The translations under genes and the position numbers were made by a program. Below, piece after piece: positions 1,053 to 15,525 of a stretch of DNA of 48,937 nt. Origin of the DNA: Oscillospiraceae bacterium (lineage in GTDB: Bacteria; Bacillota; Clostridia; Oscillospirales; Oscillospiraceae); assembly GCA_017502265.1 (NCBI GenBank), contig JAFVVI010000030.1, positions 1 to 48,937 of the forward strand, read 5' to 3'. Below the pieces are notes generated by a model. That model was not told the origin of the DNA and made no database searches. It saw only the letters and a program-made list of their open reading frames with translations. Within the stretch, counting starts at the first letter, position 1, and each line of letters opens with the position of its first letter.

Positions 1053-1361
1053 TTAGTTATTCAATTCTTGTGACAGGTATAGGCCGAGCTTGATACCATC
1101 AACAAAACCGGTTTGTTGGTGGCCACGGCAGAAACAACAGACGGCATATATCACCTCATCTTTCTCTCGTAATGTTTTGCCATTCACGGCTTCGTAAAGG
1201 TCCTCAAAGGCTTGCTTAATCTCCTCAGTGTCGCTATTACAGTTCTGATCGTAATATGCACCACAAAGAAAACCCAATACGCTATCAGCATCATCGCCAA
1301 AACTTGGTTGTGTGACAGTAAGTTTTGACTTCAGCGTTTTTACAAAATCATTCATTTTCAT
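1053..1361 (-). CDS. conserved hypothetical, 102 aa, downstream of fic-like gene
   Basis: 102-residue protein with no signal peptide or membrane span. The ATG at 1361 sits 9 bases after a GGAGG inside the end of the fic-like gene, and the two genes overlap by 14 bases, so they are translationally coupled. The segment FVDGIKLGLYLSQEL near the C-terminus resembles small proteins of clostridial mobile elements (DUF6809-like), but this is a weak recollection. Four cysteines are present, two of them in AVCCFC. Its position makes it a possible antitoxin-like or accessory partner of the Fic protein, although in known Fic toxin-antitoxin pairs the antitoxin carries an inhibitory Glu motif that I do not see here. 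Confidence 0.65.
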   Translation of the reverse strand: MKMNDFVKTLKSKLTVTQPSFGDDADSVLGFLCGAYYDQNCNSDTEEIKQAFEDLYEAVNGKTLREKDEVIYAVCCFCRGHQQTGFVDGIKLGLYLSQELNN

Positions 1362-2325
1362 CGTCGTCCGCCTCCTCTATATCACTTTCGCCCTCGCTGC
1401 TGCCATAATTTCTAAATCTAGCTTGCGGAGCGTCTCTTAGGTCTTCACGCCTTAGCTGACGAGCAAACCGCCCCTGTGCCTCTGCAACCACCTTAGCTAA
1501 GATCAAAGGATTTGTCGCCCATTTTGCGAGGCCATCGAGATATTGACTGCGGCGTTTATCGTCAATTATGAAAGGTGTCACGCCGTGACGGACACATTCC
1601 TTAAACATAATTAAGCGACCAACTCGTCCGTTGCCATCATCAAAAGGAACAATCTGTTCAAACTGGACATGGAAAGCGAGAATCTCTTCTAAGTCACTAC
1701 CTTTTCTACTTTCATACGACTGGATAAGCTTTTTTAGCATATCTCCAATTTTCTCTGCAGGTGGCATCGAACGATTACGCCTAACGCTACCTGCTTCGCG
1801 GTACACGCCAGGTGTAACCTGCCGTTTTCTATGATCCACCGTTCCAAACATCAGCAAATAGTGCAGCTGCATAATAAACTTATGGGACAGCGGCTCAGTC
1901 AAATGATCAATAATGTAATCGATGCATACGCAATGATTCATTGCTTCTACCATATCGGACACTTTGGTAGGTTCAAACAATTCACAGACCTTACCCTTTC
2001 TAAAAATCGACTCCACCTGATCCCGGGTAAGCCGGTTGCTTGCCATTCGACATGAGGAATAAGTGAAATTAATCTGTATGTAGTCATAAAAACCATGGTA
2101 GTTCTTCTTAGTTTTTTGCCGAATCAATTTCTTAGCCAAGGGTGAAATCACCGCTTTAGGGCGTTTGCTCACCATAGGCTTTGGCTTTTCAGCATCTTCT
2201 GGAATCAACCAAGTTCCGTTGTTATGCTTTGCTCCGGGAATGCGCTTTTGTCGGCAGTATTTGCGAGCGATGACCTCAGATACGCCCCACTTACTTGCTG
2301 CCTCTTTTACAGAAATATAGTCCAC
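1348..2325 (-). CDS. Fic-fold protein with N-terminal HTH; catalytic His and inhibitory Glu both replaced
   Basis: 325 residues. Residues 1-45 form an excisionase/MerR-like helix-turn-helix (YISVKEAASKWGVS, then GTWLIPEDAEKP). Residues about 80-290 are a Fic/DOC domain. The family core HxxFExIHPFxDGNGRxGR reads HVQFEQIVPFDDGNGRVGR here (H219 to R237), so Val226 replaces the catalytic His of HPFx(D/E)GN(G/K)R. The N-terminal inhibitory motif, normally (S/T)xxxE(G/N) just before N-x-L-T, reads YSSCRMASNRLT (89-100), so Ala95 replaces the inhibitory Glu. Fic enzymes usually AMPylate protein targets; this one is predicted unable to do canonical catalysis. The C-terminus is a long acidic tail. The start is GTG 2325 behind AAGGA. 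CGCGAAAC repeats lie just upstream. Confidence 0.88.
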   Translation of the reverse strand: MDYISVKEAASKWGVSEVIARKYCRQKRIPGAKHNNGTWLIPEDAEKPKPMVSKRPKAVISPLAKKLIRQKTKKNYHGFYDYIQINFTYSSCRMASNRLTRDQVESIFRKGKVCELFEPTKVSDMVEAMNHCVCIDYIIDHLTEPLSHKFIMQLHYLLMFGTVDHRKRQVTPGVYREAGSVRRNRSMPPAEKIGDMLKKLIQSYESRKGSDLEEILAFHVQFEQIVPFDDGNGRVGRLIMFKECVRHGVTPFIIDDKRRSQYLDGLAKWATNPLILAKVVAEAQGRFARQLRREDLRDAPQARFRNYGSSEGESDIEEADDDENE

Positions 2326-2351: not shown

Positions 2352-2392
2352 CGCGAAACCCCGCGAAACACTTGGGTCTCCGCGAAACACTT
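2352..2392. repeat. three CGCGAAAC repeats upstream of fic-like gene
   Basis: CGCGAAAC occurs at 2352-2359, 2362-2369 and 2381-2388; the last two extend to CGCGAAACACTT (2362-2373 and 2381-2392), which are 19 bases apart. They lie 27-67 bases upstream of the GTG start, so they could be operator sites, possibly for the protein's own HTH domain. That role is inferred from position only. Confidence 0.5.
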
Positions 2393-2470
2393 TCGTAACG
2401 AATTCATAACGAAACAGGACGGACACAATGTACCAGATGGATGAAAGTTCAATTTTTTTGGGTAATAAAC

Positions 2471-2506
2471 GGACAGTATGGACAGAATAGACAGAATAAA
2501 CAGAAT
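2471..2506. repeat. four 9-bp iteron-like tandem repeats
   Basis: Four consecutive 9-mers, GGACAGTAT, GGACAGAAT, AGACAGAAT and AAACAGAAT, share (G/A)(G/A)ACAGAAT with exact 9-base spacing. No gene is supported on either strand here. The pattern resembles iterons of mobile-element replication or excision regions, but no initiator gene is adjacent. Confidence 0.6.
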
Positions 2507-2708
2507 ATTTTGAAGTCAATTTCCCATGGCATTCAAGAGGTCAGCGGTTTGATTCTGCTTGTTGTCACTGCAAATTCAGAGTCAACAAAAGGTTTGCTCG
2601 TATTTATCGCGAAAACCTTTGATTTCAAGACTTTTTGTATGTCTGTTCGAATATAAAATATCAAAATGGGCAAAGTATAATATCCCTGCCGGATGCAAGA
2701 AAAAAGCA

Positions 2709-2737
2709 TTGACATTTGGATATGTTTATATTATACT
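2709..2737 (+). promoter_or_regulatory. sigma-A promoter of tRNA-Asn
   Basis: Perfect -35 TTGACA (2709-2714), 17-base spacer, -10 TATACT (2732-2737); transcription would start about 5 bases before the mature tRNA. Confidence 0.85.
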
Positions 2738-2749
2738 ACTGACAGATAT

Positions 2750-2825
2750 TCCCCCTTAGCTCAGTCGGTAGAGCGACGGACTGTTAATCCGCAGGTCGTT
2801 GGTTCAAGTCCAACAGGGGGAGCCA
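2750..2825 (+). tRNA. tRNA-Asn (anticodon GTT)
   Basis: A full cloverleaf is visible: acceptor TCCCCCT (2750-2756) with AGGGGGA (2815-2821), D arm GCTC/GAGC, anticodon loop with GTT at 2783-2785, and T arm GGTTCAAGTCC. The discriminator is G2822 and CCA (2823-2825) is encoded. A terminator follows 2 bases later. The neighbouring asparaginase and the aspS-gatCAB operon also concern asparagine, so tRNA-Asn may be the substrate of that amidotransferase. Confidence 0.96.
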
Positions 2826-2827
2826 AA

Positions 2828-2864
2828 AAATAACAGATACCCATTTGGGTATCTGTTATTTTTT
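2828..2864 (+). terminator. intrinsic terminator of tRNA-Asn
   Basis: A 15-bp stem, 2828-2842 with 2847-2861 (core AACAGATACCC with GGGTATCTGTT), a 4-base ATTT loop and a T run. Confidence 0.9.
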
Positions 2865-2879
2865 ATTGCAGGTCACAGA

Positions 2880-3004
2880 TGGACTCGAACCCATAGCAGT
2901 GGAAGTGTCCGGTGGACACTTCCTGCAACCAGTGCAAACACTGGTTGCTACAGTAATTTGCTCCCAGCGGGAGCAAATGCATATCGAGTCCAACAGGGGG
3001 CGCC
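2880..3004 (+). repeat. tRNA-linked hairpin element A (T-arm inverted repeats plus three 10-bp hairpins)
   Basis: The element opens with TGGACTCGA (2880-2888), the reverse complement of a tRNA T-arm, and closes with TCGAGTCCA (2984-2992). The closing copy continues into ACAGGGGG and CGCC, so 2984-3004 matches the tRNA-Asn 3' end (2804-2824) at 19 of 21 positions. Inside are three perfect 10-bp hairpins: GGAAGTGTCC/GGACACTTCC (2901-2923, loop GGT), GCAACCAGTG/CACTGGTTGC (2925-2948, loop CAAA) and ATTTGCTCCC/GGGAGCAAAT (2956-2978, loop AGC). The whole can fold as a four-way junction. A related element follows tRNA-Val at 15286-15525. It is either a structured RNA or a tRNA-targeting mini-element; I recognise no described family. 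Confidence 0.75.
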
Positions 3005-3005
3005 C

Positions 3006-3033
3006 AAAAACACACCAAACGGTGTGTTTTTTT
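3006..3033 (+). terminator. intrinsic terminator after hairpin element A
   Basis: AAAAACACACC (3006-3016) pairs with GGTGTGTTTTT (3021-3031) around AAAC, followed by T's. A second terminator here implies that transcripts cross element A. Confidence 0.8.
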
Positions 3034-3078
3034 ATTTAATTTTAATCTATACTTATACACAAGTGTCCTTGGTTATTA

Positions 3079-3106
3079 TTGAAAAGACAAATTTTTTTGA
3101 TATAAT
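3079..3106 (+). promoter_or_regulatory. sigma-A promoter of transglutaminase-like gene
   Basis: TTGAAA (3079-3084), 16-base spacer, perfect TATAAT (3101-3106); it gives a leader of about 115 bases. Confidence 0.7.
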
Positions 3107-3228
3107 AAAAATGTATAAGGGCAGTGATTATATATTTGTGTGTTAAACTACTGTGTTGAAACTACAATACTATTTATTAGAGTAAAATTTCAAAAGTGCC
3201 TTTTGAATTTATTATGGAGGCAAACAAA

Positions 3229-4071
3229 ATGTCAATTAGATCAACAATAAAAAAATTGAACGAAATAAAGAAGGCATTCCGGGAATTGCAGATAGAGCGC
3301 AAAAATGAGAAAAGCATTACTGAAAGTTTTCTTAATTCTATATATTTGTTTTCTGATTATACAATGGGTGAGACGAATAATGAATATCAATTTACGCACG
3401 AGGAACAGCAATTAAATGCTTTTTGGAAATACGACTTAAGAAATATTGCCGGTAATGGCGACACTGTCAGCAAGGTACATCGTATTATGCAATGGATTAC
3501 CGATAACAGTATATACGATGGTAACAGCCCTCTTGGGCCGTCTTTACCCGACAAAATTTTGGAATACGGATTTGAGAACAAGCAGCCGATTAACTGCGCT
3601 AATCGTGCAATTATCTTTTCAGATGCTCTTGCAAAAATTGGTGTTTTCGCAATACCTGTATGGCTTGAACATCGCACCGAAAACGGCATAGTACATTGTC
3701 ATGTTATTGCTCAAGTTTGGTTGCAGGAATACGGGTGCTGGGGTGCCTATGACCCGTCATTTAATACAAGTTTTCAATACCAAGGGAAACCTGTTGATAT
3801 TCCATCTCTCGCTATGTTGGTACGTAGAAAAAGGAAGTTTCAGATAATCGATAATAAAAGTGGGAAAACCACGGATAAAGGACGCCTATGTACAGTTTTC
3901 GGGTTGATGGATATTTCAGTGTTTGCTGGTAATGCTTTCTCGAATAGAAATAAGTGGGACGAAAGATTGCATTTTGTTCCGGAAACATATAGGAAGCTTG
4001 CGGCCATACCAAATGAAAGAGTGATAGGTCTTGCCTCGTTCAACAAAGAACCGACAGGCAGAATTTATTAG
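3229..4071 (+). CDS. transglutaminase-like cysteine protease-fold protein
   Basis: 280 residues from ATG 3229, chosen over the GTG at 3196 because GGAGG (3216-3220) lies 8 bases upstream. Residues about 70-180 carry a transglutaminase-like core: Cys123 in PINCANRAIIFSDAL, His158 in GIVHCHVIAQVWL and Asp175 in WGAYDPSF, in the order and context of the Cys-His-Asp triad of that superfamily. There is no signal peptide or membrane span, so it is probably cytosolic. Bacterial members are proteases, peptide:N-glycanase-like enzymes or crosslinkers; the substrate cannot be read from the sequence. The gene is AT-rich compared with the core genes to the right, which suggests transfer. It is followed by a hairpin array and another AT-rich gene. 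Confidence 0.75.
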   Translation: MSIRSTIKKLNEIKKAFRELQIERKNEKSITESFLNSIYLFSDYTMGETNNEYQFTHEEQQLNAFWKYDLRNIAGNGDTVSKVHRIMQWITDNSIYDGNSPLGPSLPDKILEYGFENKQPINCANRAIIFSDALAKIGVFAIPVWLEHRTENGIVHCHVIAQVWLQEYGCWGAYDPSFNTSFQYQGKPVDIPSLAMLVRRKRKFQIIDNKSGKTTDKGRLCTVFGLMDISVFAGNAFSNRNKWDERLHFVPETYRKLAAIPNERVIGLASFNKEPTGRIY

Positions 4072-4098
4072 AACCGCAACAGAATAAAATTGTAAGAG

Positions 4099-4129
4099 AA
4101 TCCTCGGTTTTTGCCCAGTTCTTTTTCGG
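4099..4129 (+). repeat. 31-bp direct repeat, left copy
   Basis: The segment AATCCTCGGTTTTT, then GCCCAGTTCTTTTTCGG, recurs at 5062-5092 with 28 of 31 identical bases. Both copies sit shortly after a stop codon (27 and 13 bases) and flank a block holding the hairpin array and the HExxH gene. Confidence 0.75.
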
Positions 4130-4132
4130 ACA

Positions 4133-4262
4133 CAACATCGTTTTGCAACGCAGTTGCAAACATCATTTGACCGCAGGTCAACATCATTCCGCTTGCGGAC
4201 ACAAAACGATGTTGCCTTCGGCAAACAGTGTAGTGCTTCGCACAAATACAATGCTCCGCATT
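4133..4262. repeat. intergenic hairpin array (closing stem, three hairpins, then three more)
   Basis: CAACATCGTTTTG (4133-4145) is perfectly inverted at 4202-4214. Between the arms are three short-loop hairpins: TTTGCAAC/GTTGCAAA (4142-4160, loop GCA), TTGACC/GGTCAA (4167-4181, loop GCA) and TCCGC/GCGGA (4188-4199, loop TT). The spacer ACATCATT occurs twice between them. Three more follow: TTGCC/GGCAA (4212-4224), GTGC/GCAC (4233-4243) and AATGC/GCATT (4250-4262), all with 3-base loops. The outer arm and first hairpin overlap, so they may be alternative folds. The layout of one closing stem around three hairpins parallels element A. Confidence 0.7.
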
Positions 4263-4289
4263 GATTTATTACCGCTTTTATGCTATGAT
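4261..4289 (+). promoter_or_regulatory. promoter of HExxH gene
   Basis: TTGATT (4261-4266), 17-base spacer, TATGAT (4284-4289). The predicted start is about 20 bases upstream of the TTG codon and directly after the hairpin array. Confidence 0.6.
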
Positions 4290-4310
4290 AAACCCAAGGC
4301 GGTGAGTTGA

Positions 4311-5048
4311 TTGATTTGCACAGTAGTCAATACTAACAATAATTGGTTTGTGTGTAAAACTGAAGGTTATGAATACCTTATTGATTTACTGGATTTTCTT
4401 TTGATAGAATATGTAAGAATTTTTGGTGAAGATACACTGTATGCAGAGAAATGTCTCATTTACAACGATCCTGAAGCGGAGTGTCCAATGTTGATTATCA
4501 ACGCTATACCCATACAGATAAGATTGGCTCAATCTTCATTAAATTATTGGGCACAAACTATATTGCAACTTTCTCACGAATTATGTCATTATTGTATTAG
4601 GCAACGAAATGATAATAAGAATTACACTTTATCGTGGTTTGAGGAAATTGTGTGTGAAGCAATATCATTGTATTTTTTAAAATGGGCTGCTGATAATTGG
4701 AATAAATGCAAATTAAGCAGAATATCTAGTGATTTTGGTAGTAACATAAAGGTATACTTATCAAATGAATTAATAAAAATGGGGACAGATGAGTTTAAAA
4801 TATGTACCGATAGAGATCTTCTTAAAAAGTATGAAGAGAGTAAAGCTACCGACAGGGAAACACACAGAAATGAGCGGAATAAATTATTTTTCGAGATTGT
4901 TAAAAATCCTGAAGCGTGCAAGTGCTTTTGTGACTATCCACAATATTTGAATTGTGACAAACTTACTATTGATTTTAATAAATGGGTTAAAATGGAAAAT
5001 AATCAAGTTTTAAGATTTTTATCATCAATACAACCTGTTGTTGACTAA
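4311..5048 (+). CDS. HExxH metallopeptidase-like protein
   Basis: 245 residues, start TTG 4311; the rare start is supported by AAGGCGGTGA at 4296-4305, five bases upstream. Residues 86-116 read QLSHELCHYC, then SWFEEIVCEAISLYF, giving H89-E90-x-x-H93 and a downstream acidic cluster (E111, E112, E116). This is the layout of gluzincin-like zinc peptidases, in which the third ligand is a Glu on a following helix. There is no signal peptide, so a cytosolic role is likely. The C-terminal 100 residues are helical and unrecognised. It is strongly AT-rich with A/T-ending codons, unlike the core genes. It sits in a block flanked by 31-bp direct repeats. The zinc-peptidase call is by motif only. Confidence 0.65.
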   Translation: MICTVVNTNNNWFVCKTEGYEYLIDLLDFLLIEYVRIFGEDTLYAEKCLIYNDPEAECPMLIINAIPIQIRLAQSSLNYWAQTILQLSHELCHYCIRQRNDNKNYTLSWFEEIVCEAISLYFLKWAADNWNKCKLSRISSDFGSNIKVYLSNELIKMGTDEFKICTDRDLLKKYEESKATDRETHRNERNKLFFEIVKNPEACKCFCDYPQYLNCDKLTIDFNKWVKMENNQVLRFLSSIQPVVD

Positions 5049-5061
5049 AAATTATATAGAA

Positions 5062-5092
5062 AATCCTCGGTTTTTACTCAGTTCTTTTTTGG
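5062..5092 (+). repeat. 31-bp direct repeat, right copy
   Basis: Second copy of the repeat at 4099-4129, with 3 differences, 13 bases after the HExxH gene stop. Confidence 0.75.
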
Positions 5093-5103
5093 TCAGTAGA
5101 GCC

Positions 5104-5146
5104 AAAAATCCCGTTCACGCAAGTGAACGGGATTTTACTTTTTTGT
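5104..5146 (+). terminator. intrinsic terminator after HExxH gene
   Basis: A 14-bp perfect stem (5105-5118 with 5123-5136; core ATCCCGTTCAC), loop GCAA, then ACTTTTTT. Confidence 0.9.
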
Positions 5147-5159
5147 TATTTGCAATATC

Positions 5160-5188
5160 TTGCGCCGGTGCGCGCCCTATGATATAAT
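5160..5188 (+). promoter_or_regulatory. promoter of asparaginase gene
   Basis: TTGCGC (5160-5165), 17-base spacer, perfect TATAAT (5183-5188). Confidence 0.65.
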
Positions 5189-5229
5189 CCATTTAAGATA
5201 TTGTCATTCCCTCACTGGAGGTTTTCTCT

Positions 5230-6273
5230 ATGTATCACTACGAAAACAACAAGCCGAAGATCCTTGTCATTCTCACCGGCGGTACGATCTGCTCCTCCAC
5301 CAACGATGAAGGGCAGCGGTACTCCAATGCGGAAAATGTGAAAATCATCGGCCATTATCAGAAGAGCAACTCCCCTTTCAGCGGCAAAGTGGATTTTGAC
5401 AAAGAAATCCCCTTGGACACCCTCAGTGAGAATATGACCGTCGCAAGATGGAACACACTGCTGGAAGCCCTTAAGGCCGTAAACTACACCAATTATAAGG
5501 GTATTATTATCCTCCACGGCACGGACACTTTGGCCTACACCGCTTCCCTGCTGGCCATCACCTTAGCCGGCATGCCCATCCCCGTTTGTCTGGTATCCAG
5601 CCAGCTGCCTCTGGACAAGGAGGGCACCAACGGCCACGCAAATTTCCGGGCCGCCGTGGAGCTGATCATGAACGGCATCGCCCCCAATGTATATGCCGTA
5701 TACCGCAATAGCGACAATATTATCTACGCCCATTTTGGCGCCCAGCTGCTACAATGTAAAAATTACAGCGACGACTTTTTTAGCCGCGGTATGACGCCTG
5801 TCAGTGCAGAGAATGCCCGTTGGGAAGGTCTGCCTTTCCGCACAAACCATTTGTACCTACAGAAAATAGAGAAGCTTTCTTCCTGCGTGCTGAAGATCGT
5901 CCCCTATGTGGGCCTGGACTACAACGCCTTCCATTTGGAGGGCATCCGCGCCATTGTCCACGGCACATACCATTCCCAGTCCGTGTGCGTAGAGCGAAGC
6001 CAAGGCGCAGGCGAGTATAGCAGCGCTTCCATTTTGCAGTTGATCGACCGCTGCAACGAAAAAGACATTCCGGTATTTTTAGCGCCCTGCAGCCCGGAAG
6101 CTGCCAAATATGAATCCACCGGCGATGCGGTGGGACACGGCGCAGGTCACATTTGCAAAACCACCAACGAAATGGCCTATATAAAAGTGTTGGTAGGCTG
6201 CGCCCTCGGCCTTAATCAGCAGGCATTGGAAACCTTTGTGAACGAAGACATCAATAACGAGTGTATCTATTAA
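5230..6273 (+). CDS. ansA: L-asparaginase (type I-like)
   Basis: 347 residues; it hydrolyses L-asparagine to aspartate and ammonia. The two family threonine motifs are present: TGGTI near residue 13 (ILTGGTICSS) and HGTDTLAYTAS near residue 97. LVSSQLPLDKEGTNGHANFRAA matches the conserved segment after the second motif. There is no signal peptide, as in the cytoplasmic type I enzymes, although the length also fits related glutaminase-asparaginases. The start at ATG 5230 follows GGAGG (5217-5221) by 8 bases. The gene is convergent with the aspS-gatCAB operon, from which it is separated by one shared terminator, and lies near tRNA-Asn, so this region concentrates asparagine-related functions. 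Confidence 0.88.
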   Translation: MYHYENNKPKILVILTGGTICSSTNDEGQRYSNAENVKIIGHYQKSNSPFSGKVDFDKEIPLDTLSENMTVARWNTLLEALKAVNYTNYKGIIILHGTDTLAYTASLLAITLAGMPIPVCLVSSQLPLDKEGTNGHANFRAAVELIMNGIAPNVYAVYRNSDNIIYAHFGAQLLQCKNYSDDFFSRGMTPVSAENARWEGLPFRTNHLYLQKIEKLSSCVLKIVPYVGLDYNAFHLEGIRAIVHGTYHSQSVCVERSQGAGEYSSASILQLIDRCNEKDIPVFLAPCSPEAAKYESTGDAVGHGAGHICKTTNEMAYIKVLVGCALGLNQQALETFVNEDINNECIY

Positions 6274-6274
6274 G

Positions 6275-6316
6275 AAAACCCCCTTTTGCACCAAGTGCAA
6301 AAGGGGGTTCTTTTAT
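6275..6316. terminator. bidirectional terminator between ansA and gatB
   Basis: A 15-bp stem with core CCCCCTTTTGCAC (6277-6291) pairing to 6295-6309, 3-base loop, with A/T runs on both sides; it serves both convergent units. Confidence 0.88.
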
Positions 6317-6327
6317 CATTGGGACAA

Positions 6328-7764
6328 TTAGCCGTTAATGGTCTCCAGCAACACAGTACGGAGGACCTGGGGATCACAGTTGCCCTTCAGTTCCCGCATA
6401 CACTTGCCGAACAGGGCCATCAGCGCCTTTTCCTTGCCGCTCTTGAAGTCCTCCACGGACTTGGGATCTGCGGCAACAACAGCCTTGACCACAGCCTTAA
6501 TATTATCCGTATCATTGGAGATAATCAGACCGTTCTGCTCTGCATAGGTCAGGGGGTCGATATCCTCTTCAAACATAGCAGCCAGGATCTTCCGGCCGTT
6601 GGCGCTGCCCACCTTGCCGTCGGCCACCAAAGCAATCAGCTTACCCAGGGCCTTGCCGCTGATGGGCAGGGCGTCCACGGTCATTTGCTTCTTGTTAAGG
6701 ATCTTCATGCAGTCGGAGATCAGCCAGTTGGCCACTTCCTTGGCCCGGCCGCACTGGGCGGTGGCTTCCTCGAAGCAGTCGCACATCTGACGGCTCTGGA
6801 TCAGCTGGTCTGCATCATATTCGGTCAGGCCCAGCTCATTCACATAGCGCTCCTTCTTGACCTCGGGGAACTCCGGCAGAGAGGCCTTGATCCGGTCATA
6901 CCATTCGTCGTCAATGACGATGGGCATAATGTTGGGGTCAGGGAAATACCGGTAATCGCCGGCGGTCTCCTTGGTACGCATAGCGTAGCTCTTGCCCTTG
7001 ATATCGTCCCACCGGCGGGTCTCCTGCACCAGCTCGTCGGAGCCGGATTCGATGCAATCGATATGCCGGGCGGTTTCGTACTCAATGGCCCGGACGATGG
7101 CGGACAGAGAGTTCATATTCTTCATCTCAGTACGGACACCCAGCTTGGTGCTGCCCACAGGACGGACAGACAGATTCACATCGCAGCGCATAGAGCCCTG
7201 CTCCATACGGCAGCCGGAGACCTTTGCAAACCGCAGCAGGGAGCGCAGCCGCTCCAGATAGGCCACCACCTCTTCGGCGCTGGACAGGTCCGGCTGGCTG
7301 ACGATCTCGATCAGCGGAACGCTGGTACGGTTAAAGTCCACCAAGGAAGTATCGGTCCATTCATCGTGGACCAGCTTACCGGCGTCCTCCTCCATATGGA
7401 TCTGCTTGATGCGGATATCCTTAGGACCGTTGGCGGTCTGGATGGTCACAGTACCATTGACGCAGACGGGGGCAAACCACTGGGTGGTCTGGTAGGAGCA
7501 AGGCAGGTCCGGGTAATAATAGCTCTTTTTATCAAAGGTGGTCACGCGGTTGATATGACAGTTGAGCATCATACCGGCGGTCATACCCAGATCCACTGCG
7601 TGCTTGTTGACGATGGGCAGCATACCGGGCATACCGCAGCAGGCGGGGCAAACATGCTCGTTCTGCTCGCCGCCGAATTTTGCGGAGCAGGAGCAGAAGA
7701 TCTTGGACTCGGTGGCCATTTCCACATGGACCTCCAAGCCGATGACGGTTTCATACTTTTGCAT
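6328..7764 (-). CDS. gatB: Asp-tRNA(Asn)/Glu-tRNA(Gln) amidotransferase subunit B
   Basis: 478 residues, the normal length for GatB, the subunit that phosphorylates the mischarged aminoacyl-tRNA and uses ammonia to amidate it. Conserved features are visible: IGLEVHVEM at residue 9, PACCGMPGMLP, SYYYPDLPCSYQTTQ, IHMEEDAGKL, TSVPLIEIVSQPD and the C-terminal YqeY-like helical tRNA-binding domain. The start ATG 7764 overlaps the gatA stop by one base, behind GGAGGG. It is the last gene of the T-box controlled aspS-gatC-gatA-gatB operon. GatB looks intact although its partner GatA does not, so the kinase and transamidase steps may still work with free or externally supplied ammonia. Confidence 0.96.
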   Translation of the reverse strand: MQKYETVIGLEVHVEMATESKIFCSCSAKFGGEQNEHVCPACCGMPGMLPIVNKHAVDLGMTAGMMLNCHINRVTTFDKKSYYYPDLPCSYQTTQWFAPVCVNGTVTIQTANGPKDIRIKQIHMEEDAGKLVHDEWTDTSLVDFNRTSVPLIEIVSQPDLSSAEEVVAYLERLRSLLRFAKVSGCRMEQGSMRCDVNLSVRPVGSTKLGVRTEMKNMNSLSAIVRAIEYETARHIDCIESGSDELVQETRRWDDIKGKSYAMRTKETAGDYRYFPDPNIMPIVIDDEWYDRIKASLPEFPEVKKERYVNELGLTEYDADQLIQSRQMCDCFEEATAQCGRAKEVANWLISDCMKILNKKQMTVDALPISGKALGKLIALVADGKVGSANGRKILAAMFEEDIDPLTYAEQNGLIISNDTDNIKAVVKAVVAADPKSVEDFKSGKEKALMALFGKCMRELKGNCDPQVLRTVLLETING

Positions 7765-11072: not shown

Positions 11073-11325
11073 AAACAAAAAAGACACCGTTCGCCCAAAT
11101 ATGGGACGAAAGGCATCTTCCGCGGTACCACCCAAATTGATCGCAAAGCGATCCACTCTTGTGCTTTAACGCAGCATAACGGGCGGGTCTACCTCCCCAA
11201 ATGGGGGCTCTTCCGCCGGCTCCGGAGTGTTCTTCTCGCAAGGGGCATTACTGTCTTCCCACCGCCGACAGCTCTCTTGGAATGCGATCCTCAGGATACT
11301 GGCTCCATCACAGCCATTTTTAACA
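11073..11325 (-). promoter_or_regulatory. T-box riboswitch leader of aspS-gatCAB
   Basis: On the minus strand the T-box bulge motif GGGTGGTACCGCGG lies at 11133-11120, preceded by about 190 bases of leader. It is followed by a terminator stem (AAGATGCCTTTCGTCCC against GGGCGAACGGTGTCTT) and a T run ending near 11073. T-boxes sense uncharged tRNA; by gene context this one should read tRNA-Asp or tRNA-Asn. I could not place the specifier codon with confidence. Confidence 0.92.
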
Positions 11326-15151: not shown

Positions 15152-15228
15152 GGAGGCTTAGCTCAGCTGGTTAGAGCGCCTGCTTCACACGCAGGAGGTC
15201 GATGGTTCGAGTCCATTAGTCTCCACCA
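15152..15228 (+). tRNA. tRNA-Val (anticodon CAC)
   Basis: Cloverleaf: acceptor GGAGGCT with AGTCTCC (one G-T pair), D stem GCTC/GAGC, anticodon stem CCTGC/GCAGG with loop TTCACAC (anticodon CAC), variable loop AGGTC and T arm GATGG/CCATT with loop TTCGAGT. Discriminator A15225; CCA encoded at 15226-15228. A terminator and hairpin element B follow. Confidence 0.95.
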
Positions 15229-15285: not shown

Positions 15286-15525
15286 AATGGACTCGAAAGG
15301 CGGCTCTTGGCAAGTGTCCGGTGGGGAGCGATGCGACCGCTGCCGGTGGCAGATGAAGGGAGCAGAGCGAGTGGCCGCGGTCGGTGTGCAACGCAGCCGC
15401 ACCGTCGGCAAGGCGCACACCGGGCACCGCAACAGGACTGTTGCTGTGACCAGTGCAAACACTGGTCACTACCTTAATTTTCTGCCATCGGGAGAAAATG
15501 CAAAGTCGAGTCCATTAGTCTCCAC
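15286..15525 (+). repeat. tRNA-linked hairpin element B
   Basis: Homologue of element A. It opens with AATGGACTCGA (15286-15296) and closes with the inverted copy TCGAGTCCATT (15506-15516). The end 15506-15525 is identical over 20 bases to the tRNA-Val 3' end (15207-15226). Shared with element A: AAGTGTCCGGTGG (15312-15324), ACCAGTGCAAACACTGGT (15449-15466), and an AT-rich hairpin (ATTTTCTGCC/GGGAGAAAAT, 15477-15499). Where element A has its first hairpin, B carries about 130 extra bases with CTGCC/GGCAG (15340-15352), CGGTGTGC/GCACACCG (15382-15422) and GCAACAG/CTGTTGC (15429-15444). Stems of the last two hairpins differ from A by paired changes. Confidence 0.75.

What the first reader, a model, noticed from the sequence alone, without database searches (positions are those of the whole stretch)
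2880..3004. tRNA-linked element whose terminal inverted repeats equal the tRNA T-arm and which encloses three perfect hairpins
Directly after the tRNA-Asn terminator, TGGACTCGA and its inverted copy TCGAGTCCA bound three 10-bp hairpins with 3-4 base loops, and the right end repeats the tRNA-Asn 3' end (19 of 21 bases). The unit can fold as a four-way junction like an enlarged tRNA and is followed by its own terminator. Possible roles: structured RNA co-transcribed with the tRNA, a decoy for tRNA-processing enzymes, or a mini-element that targets T-arm sequences. I know of no described family with this design.
Basis: partly seen in the sequence, partly recalled or inferred. Interest (0 to 1): 0.78.

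Follow-up and report, generated by a model that had tools for sequence, protein, structure and literature searches.

The report
Mobile hairpin copying its tRNA's ends
Behind many transfer-RNA genes of a group of gut bacteria sits a short piece of DNA with two or three hairpins whose two ends repeat part of whichever tRNA gene it stands behind; it likely spreads from one tRNA gene to the next and would have its ends rewritten to fit each new one.

Summary
The same 90-120 bp unit occurs in 86 of 101 sampled genomes of the window's genus and at 10 places in its own genome. Of 130 distinct copies, 87 start within 70 nt of the 3' end of a same-strand tRNA or tmRNA gene. The hairpin stems covary strongly but almost never use G-U pairs: 1.2%, against 7.3% in tRNAs of fetched loci. 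That favours DNA hairpins over a functional RNA. In 131 copies the right end repeats tRNA positions 56-69 or further, and the left end is the reverse complement of positions 56-63 of that same tRNA. Within one genome, closely similar interiors stand behind different tRNAs with both ends changed. One locus shows the empty site in a relative. I read it as a non-autonomous mobile element, likely moved as folded single-stranded DNA by a recombinase in trans; that enzyme was not found. Islands and defence genes lie between some copies.

The parts
2750..2825 (+). tRNA-Asn (GTT), the gene behind which copy A stands; C56 = 2805, CCA = 2823-2825
   Evidence: ARAGORN, Rfam, sequence
2825..2864 (+). hairpin H: perfect 19-bp terminator-like palindrome that appears to come with the element
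   Evidence: by eye, tmRNA loci with a copy have hairpins of one look here (CNCC.. / ..GGNG), loci without a copy have unlike ones except L217
2880..2887 (+). left arm: reverse complement of positions 56-63 of the adjacent tRNA (inverted T-loop/T-stem)
   Evidence: in this copy off by one base at position 57
2901..2923 (+). hairpin 1, 10-bp stem, loop GGT
2925..2948 (+). hairpin 2, 10-bp stem, CCAGTG..CACTGG
2956..2978 (+). hairpin 3, 10-bp stem (absent in part of the family)
2985..3005 (+). right end: direct copy of the tRNA 3' end from C56 to the CCA position (18 of 21)
   Evidence: family-wide
3006..3031 (+). terminator behind the right copy, in the place of the native tRNA terminator
   Evidence: same position as the terminator in the empty site of a relative at another tRNA
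15152..15228 (+). tRNA-Val (CAC) of copy B
15288..15525 (+). copy B: left arm 15288-15295, composite interior (type-2 start AAAGGCGGCTCTTGG, about 100 bp extra, then type-1 hairpins 2 and 3), right copy 15507-15525

Best explanation
The unit is one copy of a family of 90-120 bp DNA elements that stand directly behind tRNA and tmRNA genes and carry at both ends a copy of part of that gene's own T-arm; it is likely a non-autonomous mobile element that moves as folded single-stranded DNA. Shown: the anatomy is tRNA(..T55|C56..CCA) - hairpin H - [63'..56'] - interior of two or three hairpins - [C56..CCA] - terminator. Shown: one covariance model of the interior matches behind 29 kinds of tRNA and behind tmRNA, while the ends follow the tRNA at hand. 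Shown: at one locus a relative has the same tRNA and the same next gene without the insert. Inferred: in folded single-stranded form the two arms pair into a short duplex equal to the T-arm half of the tRNA gene, and a recombinase supplied in trans joins this fold to the tRNA gene at the T55|C56 step. That leaves a whole tRNA gene on the left and the displaced 3' end on the right. Inferred: tRNA-targeting islands then use the tRNA and the right copy as landing sites, so that cargo accumulates between copies. Not explained: how the left arm comes to match a new tRNA.
For: Distribution: 86 of 101 genus genomes have a copy (24 of 28 good ones), up to 21 per genome. Placement of 130 distinct copies: 87 within 70 nt behind a same-strand tRNA/tmRNA end, 19 later units behind another copy, 10 at a contig edge, 14 without a recognised tRNA. 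Covariation in 105 copies: 97.4% of cells paired, 513 double-sided changes against 131 in shuffles (the alignment is fitted to the structure). DNA-like pairing: G-U 37 of 3030 standard pairs, against 131 of 1797 in 82 tRNAs of fetched loci. Ends follow the adjacent tRNA: right 0.89-0.99 identical at 56-69, left 0.89-0.99 at 56-63, then a sharp drop (131 of 196 copies; offsets there were chosen for best match); own tRNA beats permuted tRNAs, 0 of 2000 reaching it (97 copies). Ends follow the tRNA rather than each other: of 600 cells, 563 all agree, 21 left-only and 13 right-only departures, 2 all different, 1 where both ends agree against the tRNA. Retargeting: nearest interior lies in the same genome at another tRNA for 24 of 90, against 4.6 expected; of 211 same-genome different-tRNA pairs, 11 are 85% or more alike inside and 10 of these differ in both arms. 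Empty site at tRNA-Ser(TGA): L308 against L309. Transfer: the same 1.7-kb unit with a DUF4417 gene, 94.6% identical, behind tRNA-Leu(GAG) in one record and in a tRNA-Arg(CCG) array in another.
Against: No recombinase was identified. The integron integrase model is over its cut-off in 0 of 101 genomes. Large serine recombinases often end beside a copy (21 of 30 loci by eye; 17 of 30 by model), but tRNA-Val(GAC) genes in general are followed by a copy in 15 of 28 loci with readable flank (18 by eye), so this is no clear sign of a mobiliser; other tRNAs were not used as a base rate. A folded site recombining with a tRNA would not by itself rewrite both arms for a new tRNA. The interior tree also carries a tRNA signal (57 changes of tRNA label against a mean of 72 in shuffles; for the genome label 57 against 70), so part of the spread is inheritance at the same tRNA. 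Only one clean empty site was found. Strict pairing could also come from repair of imperfect palindromes during replication.
Confidence: 0.5

Rival explanations
1. The unit is a structured RNA, co-transcribed by read-through from the tRNA promoter; its arms pair into a tRNA-like acceptor/T stem ending in CCA and act in tRNA maturation or regulation.
For: Strong covariation, z -8.88 fold, the strand of the tRNA in 87 of 130 copies and no copy found only beside a tRNA in another orientation, right copies often keep CCA.
Against: G-U pairs are about six times rarer than in tRNAs of fetched loci; a terminator-like hairpin precedes it; 15 of 30 tmRNA loci had no model match (at least two of these end at the tmRNA); copies stand behind unrelated genes in arrays; no Rfam family.
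Confidence: 0.13
2. The units are attachment-site remains of ordinary tRNA-targeting islands (serine or tyrosine integrase): the right copy is the displaced tRNA 3' end and the hairpins belong to the islands' own attP region.
For: Displaced 3' fragments mark tRNA islands (Islander, PMC4383910, abstract seen in the listing). Serine-recombinase genes end at ..ACCA next to copies in 21 of 30 loci by eye. L205 has a truncated tyrosine recombinase inside the array.
Against: Adjacency is not clearly above the base rate (15 of 28 loci). In G108 a serine-recombinase gene ends at ACCA without the hairpin unit behind it. One interior model serves 29 tRNA kinds and tmRNA, whereas island integrases are as a rule specific (recalled). 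Known att sites carry no inverted arm that changes with the tRNA (recalled).
Confidence: 0.22
3. The units are host-kept landing pads or decoys: a second tRNA 3' end with its own terminator that draws integrating islands away from the tRNA gene.
For: At tRNA-Val(GAC)-type ends the right copy is followed by sequence like the left end of the serine-recombinase islands (L339, L340, L342 = L399, L365; by eye). Defence and other cargo lies between copies.
Against: Does not explain the covarying hairpins, the 8-nt inverted arm, or spread between tRNAs. Islands also insert at the tRNA itself (L398, L400).
Confidence: 0.1

Closest known systems
Integron gene cassettes and attC sites
   Same: Recombination site that would work as a folded single strand; complementary arms; some arrays of cargo followed by the hairpin site (L037, L200).
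   Different: No integron integrase over cut-off in 101 genus genomes. The anchor is a tRNA or tmRNA gene, not attI. Arms copy the tRNA. Two or three separate hairpins instead of one imperfect one. Most units stand directly behind the tRNA without cargo.
tRNA-targeted genomic islands (Islander type)
   Same: Insert at the tRNA 3' part; tRNA regenerated; displaced 3' end marks the far side.
   Different: About 180 bp in all, no integrase, one interior family at 29 tRNA kinds and tmRNA, extra inverted 8-nt arm and hairpins.
Bacterial MITEs and small dispersed repeats (BOX, RUP, REP; papers seen only as listings; REP recalled)
   Same: Short, non-autonomous, hairpin-forming, many copies per genome.
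   Different: Ends are not fixed terminal repeats but follow the neighbouring tRNA; the target is a tRNA or tmRNA 3' end (one apparent 5S rRNA case); no matching transposase found.

Membership tests
Integron cassette / attC | integron integrase (TIGR02249) in the genome | tested here: not met
   0 of 101 genus genomes over the curated cut-off (weaker matches in 100 of 101 are other tyrosine recombinases)
Integron cassette / attC | conserved R boxes (GTTRRRY/RYYYAAC, recalled) at the site ends | tested here: not met
   by reading alignment A2: ends follow the tRNA, no such boxes
Integron cassette / attC | site defined by folded-strand pairing rather than sequence | tested here: inconclusive
   hairpins covary with almost no G-U, which fits; use as a recombination site was not tested, and the arms do not covary with each other independently of the tRNA
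Integron cassette / attC | single-strand cleavage and replicative resolution | not testable with these tools
   needs biochemistry
tRNA-targeted genomic island | regenerated tRNA plus displaced 3' fragment | tested here: met
tRNA-targeted genomic island | carries an integrase gene | tested here: not met
   the unit is about 180 bp without a gene
MITE | fixed terminal inverted repeats shared with an autonomous transposon | tested here: not met
   arms change with the tRNA; no match to window 2826-3035 in 50,697 phage and 72,556 plasmid records; no transposon with these ends met, but none was searched for in the genomes
REP/REPIN with RAYT transposase | GTAG-hairpin and a RAYT gene (recalled) | not tested
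   no RAYT search was run
known RNA families (Rfam 15) | match over gathering score | tested here: not met
   only two tRNAs and a T-box in the window; weak matches below cut-off only for 2740-3100

The most novel reading that the evidence does not exclude
A mobile DNA element that writes its own ends from its target: whenever it settles behind a new tRNA or tmRNA gene it takes up that gene's T-arm, inverted on one side and direct on the other, so that one hairpin core can use every tRNA gene of the genome as a home and turns each into the anchor of an integron-like array of cargo and defence genes.
Probability: 0.35. Interest if true: 0.92.

Novelty: new variant of a known kind. Interest (0 to 1): 0.78.

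Why it matters
Mobile elements known to me bring fixed ends and choose a matching target. Here the core is constant and the ends are custom-made for 29 kinds of tRNA gene and for tmRNA. If retargeting with end rewriting is real, it is an unfamiliar way to spread through all tRNA genes. It would also give this genus, in which no integron integrase was found in 101 genomes, an integron-like cassette system anchored on tRNA genes; one array holds a HaeIII-type restriction-modification system with a Shedu gene. The question is directly testable by looking for excised forms and by strand-transfer assays.

Tried and rejected
Serine recombinase as the mobiliser: found beside copies in 21 of 30 loci by eye (17 of 30 by model; 30 of the 37 matches listed were fetched). 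The base rate at tRNA-Val(GAC) is 15 of 28 loci with readable flank (18 by eye). I counted this by locus from the print; the script's own tally of 16, 14 and 3 counts tandem genes apart. Not adopted. In the same comparison I first took the sequence TACATGAAAAATCC at tRNA-Val(GAC) for the native terminator and a second empty site. One search showed it to look like the left end of the serine-recombinase islands, so it was not counted.

Tyrosine recombinases of the own genome: three of four stand at other tRNA genes, as ordinary islands do. A prophage integrase next to a copy (L245) sits behind a tRNA-Lys half, so the prophage seems to have entered beside a resident copy. Phage and plasmid collections gave no match. 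The left arm as a direct copy of the 5' T-stem strand was rejected by reading: it follows the 3' strand (for example AAGGGACTCGAA at tRNA-Arg in L022). Arms kept equal by compensatory change were rejected. Further empty sites were looked for among tmRNA and tRNA-Val(GAC) flanks without a clean pair. A reverse-transcribed snap-back copy of the tRNA end was considered for the long palindromes (L020, L022, L028) and not tested.

One search used 97 of 106 with an upstream tRNA. One search used 131 of 196. Searches used 88 of 105 rows for the tree. One search covered 10 proteins; the HTH gene of L042 was named; the SDR label of the L151 cargo and the M14-peptidase label of L308/L309 are from reading alone (the L151 coordinates failed). 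L336 and L337 were not examined.

Full report
OBSERVATION. Behind tRNA-Asn (2750-2825) and a perfect 19-bp terminator-like hairpin (2825-2864) lie TGGACTCGA (2880-2888), three perfect 10-bp hairpins (2901-2923, 2925-2948, 2956-2978), TCGAGTCCA (2984-2992) running on as a copy of the tRNA-Asn 3' end, and a second terminator (3006-3031). As one strand it folds at -81.7 kcal/mol, z -8.88. Rfam has nothing for it at gathering score; at the permissive threshold there are only weak matches below their families' cut-offs.

A FAMILY. A DNA search of the own genome found further copies, which stand behind tRNA-Arg(ACG), tmRNA, tRNA-Lys and tRNA-Val, and one without a tRNA in reach. An alignment of 22 copies gave 31 base pairs, 20 of them with changes on both sides, and a covariance model R1. 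R1 finds 9 places in the own genome at E below 1e-4 and one more at tRNA-Lys (L047). In the genus it finds 86 of 101 genomes, 24 of the 28 best ones, with up to 21 copies. In the order it finds 7 of 295 genomes, five of them outside the genus with weaker, shorter relatives of a second type. Of nine such loci read, seven stand within 62 nt behind a tRNA, one (L323) is a unit of a tandem behind tRNA-Ser, and one (L321) follows a tRNA 3' half at a contig edge. An exact scan for hairpin 1 over named genomes gave 104 stretches; of the 80 titles listed, 71 name Oscillospiraceae or other Clostridia or Bacillota MAGs and 9 name unrelated bacteria.

PLACEMENT. Of 130 distinct copies, 87 start within 70 nt behind a same-strand tRNA or tmRNA gene, 19 are later units behind another copy, 10 lie at a contig edge and 14 have no recognised tRNA; no copy fell in the class of those found only beside a tRNA in another orientation within 150 nt. 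Of the 14, four (L052, L095, L141, L143) follow the 3' half of a tRNA, as after island insertion, and two (L157, L179) follow a serine-recombinase ORF (by eye). In one search the 131 copies stand behind 29 kinds of tRNA (by anticodon) and tmRNA. Fifteen of 30 fetched tmRNA loci have a copy; at least two of the other fifteen end at the tmRNA.

DNA RATHER THAN RNA. In 105 aligned copies 97.4% of cells are paired, with 513 double-sided changes against 131 in shuffles, and the signal falls away when the partners are slid. Yet G-U pairs make up 37 of 3030 standard pairs (1.2%), fewer than the 79 plain mismatches, against 131 of 1797 (7.3%) in 82 distinct tRNAs of fetched loci. A functional RNA would tolerate G-U. 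DNA hairpins, or repair of palindromes in DNA, would not.

THE ENDS BELONG TO THE tRNA. Per position over 131 copies, the right copy matches the adjacent tRNA at 0.89-0.99 from 56 to 69 and falls to 0.63 at the last base of the CCA. The left inverted arm matches at 0.97-0.99 from 56 to 61, 0.93 and 0.89 at 62 and 63, 0.60 at 64, 0.52 at 65 and chance or less beyond (there the offset of each end was chosen for best match over ten bases). The match is to the own tRNA and not to tRNAs in general: right 6.54 of 7 against 4.05, left 5.80 against 3.98, 0 of 2000 permutations for both (97 copies, no such choice of offset). In 75 copies and 8 positions, both ends and the tRNA agree in 563 of 600 cells; the left end alone departs in 21, the right alone in 13, both together against the tRNA in 1, all three differ in 2. 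The one joint departure is position 57 of the window's own copy. So ends are copies of the tRNA that decay separately; they are not kept paired by compensatory change, unlike the hairpins between them.

RETARGETING AND INSERTION. Interiors (ends excluded) have their nearest relative in the same genome at a different tRNA in 24 of 90 cases (4.6 expected), at the same tRNA in another genome in 17 (3.8 expected), and at a different tRNA in another genome in 49 (81.6 expected). Of 211 same-genome pairs at different tRNAs, eleven are 85% or more alike inside, and ten of these differ in both arms. In G090 the copies behind Arg(ACG), Ser(GCT, 260 nt away) and Lys(TTT) are 89-94% alike with GGGACTCG..CGAGTCCC, GGGATTTG..CAAATCCC and GAGATTCG..CGAATCTC. 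A tree of 88 interiors needs 57 changes of tRNA label (100 shuffles: 68-77), which leaves many switches even though some inheritance by tRNA is plain. At tRNA-Ser(TGA), followed by the same gene (read as an M14-type peptidase, 47% identical), G076 has CCA directly followed by its terminator; G000 has hairpin H, arm, hairpins and a second C56..CCA in between, then a terminator and homologous DNA.

CARGO AND ISLANDS. Some units repeat with cargo between them: G008 tRNA-Tyr, three units with ORFs of 195 and 199 aa, then 159 aa, between them (no Pfam match); G008 tRNA-Arg(CCG), two units around two C5 methyltransferases, a HaeIII-type endonuclease and a Shedu SduA protein. A 1.7-kb unit with a DUF4417 gene is 94.6% identical behind tRNA-Leu(GAG) in L117 and in a tRNA-Arg(CCG) array in L130, where it keeps its Leu-type right end. 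In G099 and G108 about 20 kb lie between tRNA-Val(GAC) and a serine-recombinase gene that ends at ..ACCA. In G099 this ACCA is followed by a copy whose own right ACCA is followed by sequence like the left end of another such island (by eye). The right copy thus seems to serve as an island landing site.

MECHANISM. Most likely, inferred: a folded single strand in which the arms pair to an 8-bp duplex equal to tRNA positions 56-63 is exchanged with the tRNA gene at T55|C56 by a recombinase in trans. The product order, whole tRNA - (cargo or H) - inverted arm - hairpins - displaced 3' end, is what such an exchange gives, as in integrons. What this does not give is new arms at a new tRNA. Possible sources are conversion by the tRNA after insertion, or copying of the target end during strand displacement through the palindrome H; neither was tested. 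No integron integrase was found, and the serine recombinase beside copies is not clearly above base rate.

NOVELTY. Eight literature searches over the open PMC library listed no paper that by title or abstract start is about such an element; I read listings only and opened no paper. The library lacks most subscription journals. I rate it a new variant of a known kind (tiny, non-autonomous, tRNA-targeted mobile DNA), with the end rewriting as the part without a counterpart known to me.

Noticed in passing
L041 (G022:C5) 7000-7467: Two hairpin-1 matches (22-23 bp; no match to model R1) stand beside what reads like a 5S rRNA gene at a contig end, with stretches resembling its inverted 3' end; targets may include 5S rRNA.
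   Followed up: no
L200 (G008:C44) 2358-7042: HaeIII-type restriction-modification genes and a Shedu SduA gene lie between two copies behind tRNA-Arg(CCG).
   Followed up: partly
L319-L332, window 15288-15345: A second type of the element (TCGAAAGGCGGCTCTTGG..AACCGCCGTGG) occurs behind tRNAs in other families of the order, in tandem in L323; window copy B starts as this type and ends as the first.
   Followed up: partly
L346, L349, L350, L352, L363, L364, L366: A third type (roughly AAAGGGCGGCC..GTCCGGTGGAC..AGCCCGTGGGAGAGTCC) follows serine-recombinase genes.
   Followed up: no
L044 3110-4702 (minus), L179: The serine-recombinase reading frame runs through the CCACCA junction into hairpin H and the element, as if its own stop codon had been left behind at insertion.
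   Followed up: no
L245 (IMGVR_UViG_3300032167_005259): A prophage seems to have entered a tRNA-Lys by its 3' half just upstream of a resident copy; a DDE transposase gene lies between this copy and a second one with ends of another tRNA type.
   Followed up: partly
window 11099-11320 (minus): T-box leader.
   Followed up: no
window 1348-2325 (minus), 3196-4071, 4311-5048: Fic-domain gene before the tRNA-Asn and a transglutaminase-like gene plus an unnamed gene behind copy A, possibly array cargo; no further copy of the tRNA-Asn end lies downstream in the window.
   Followed up: partly
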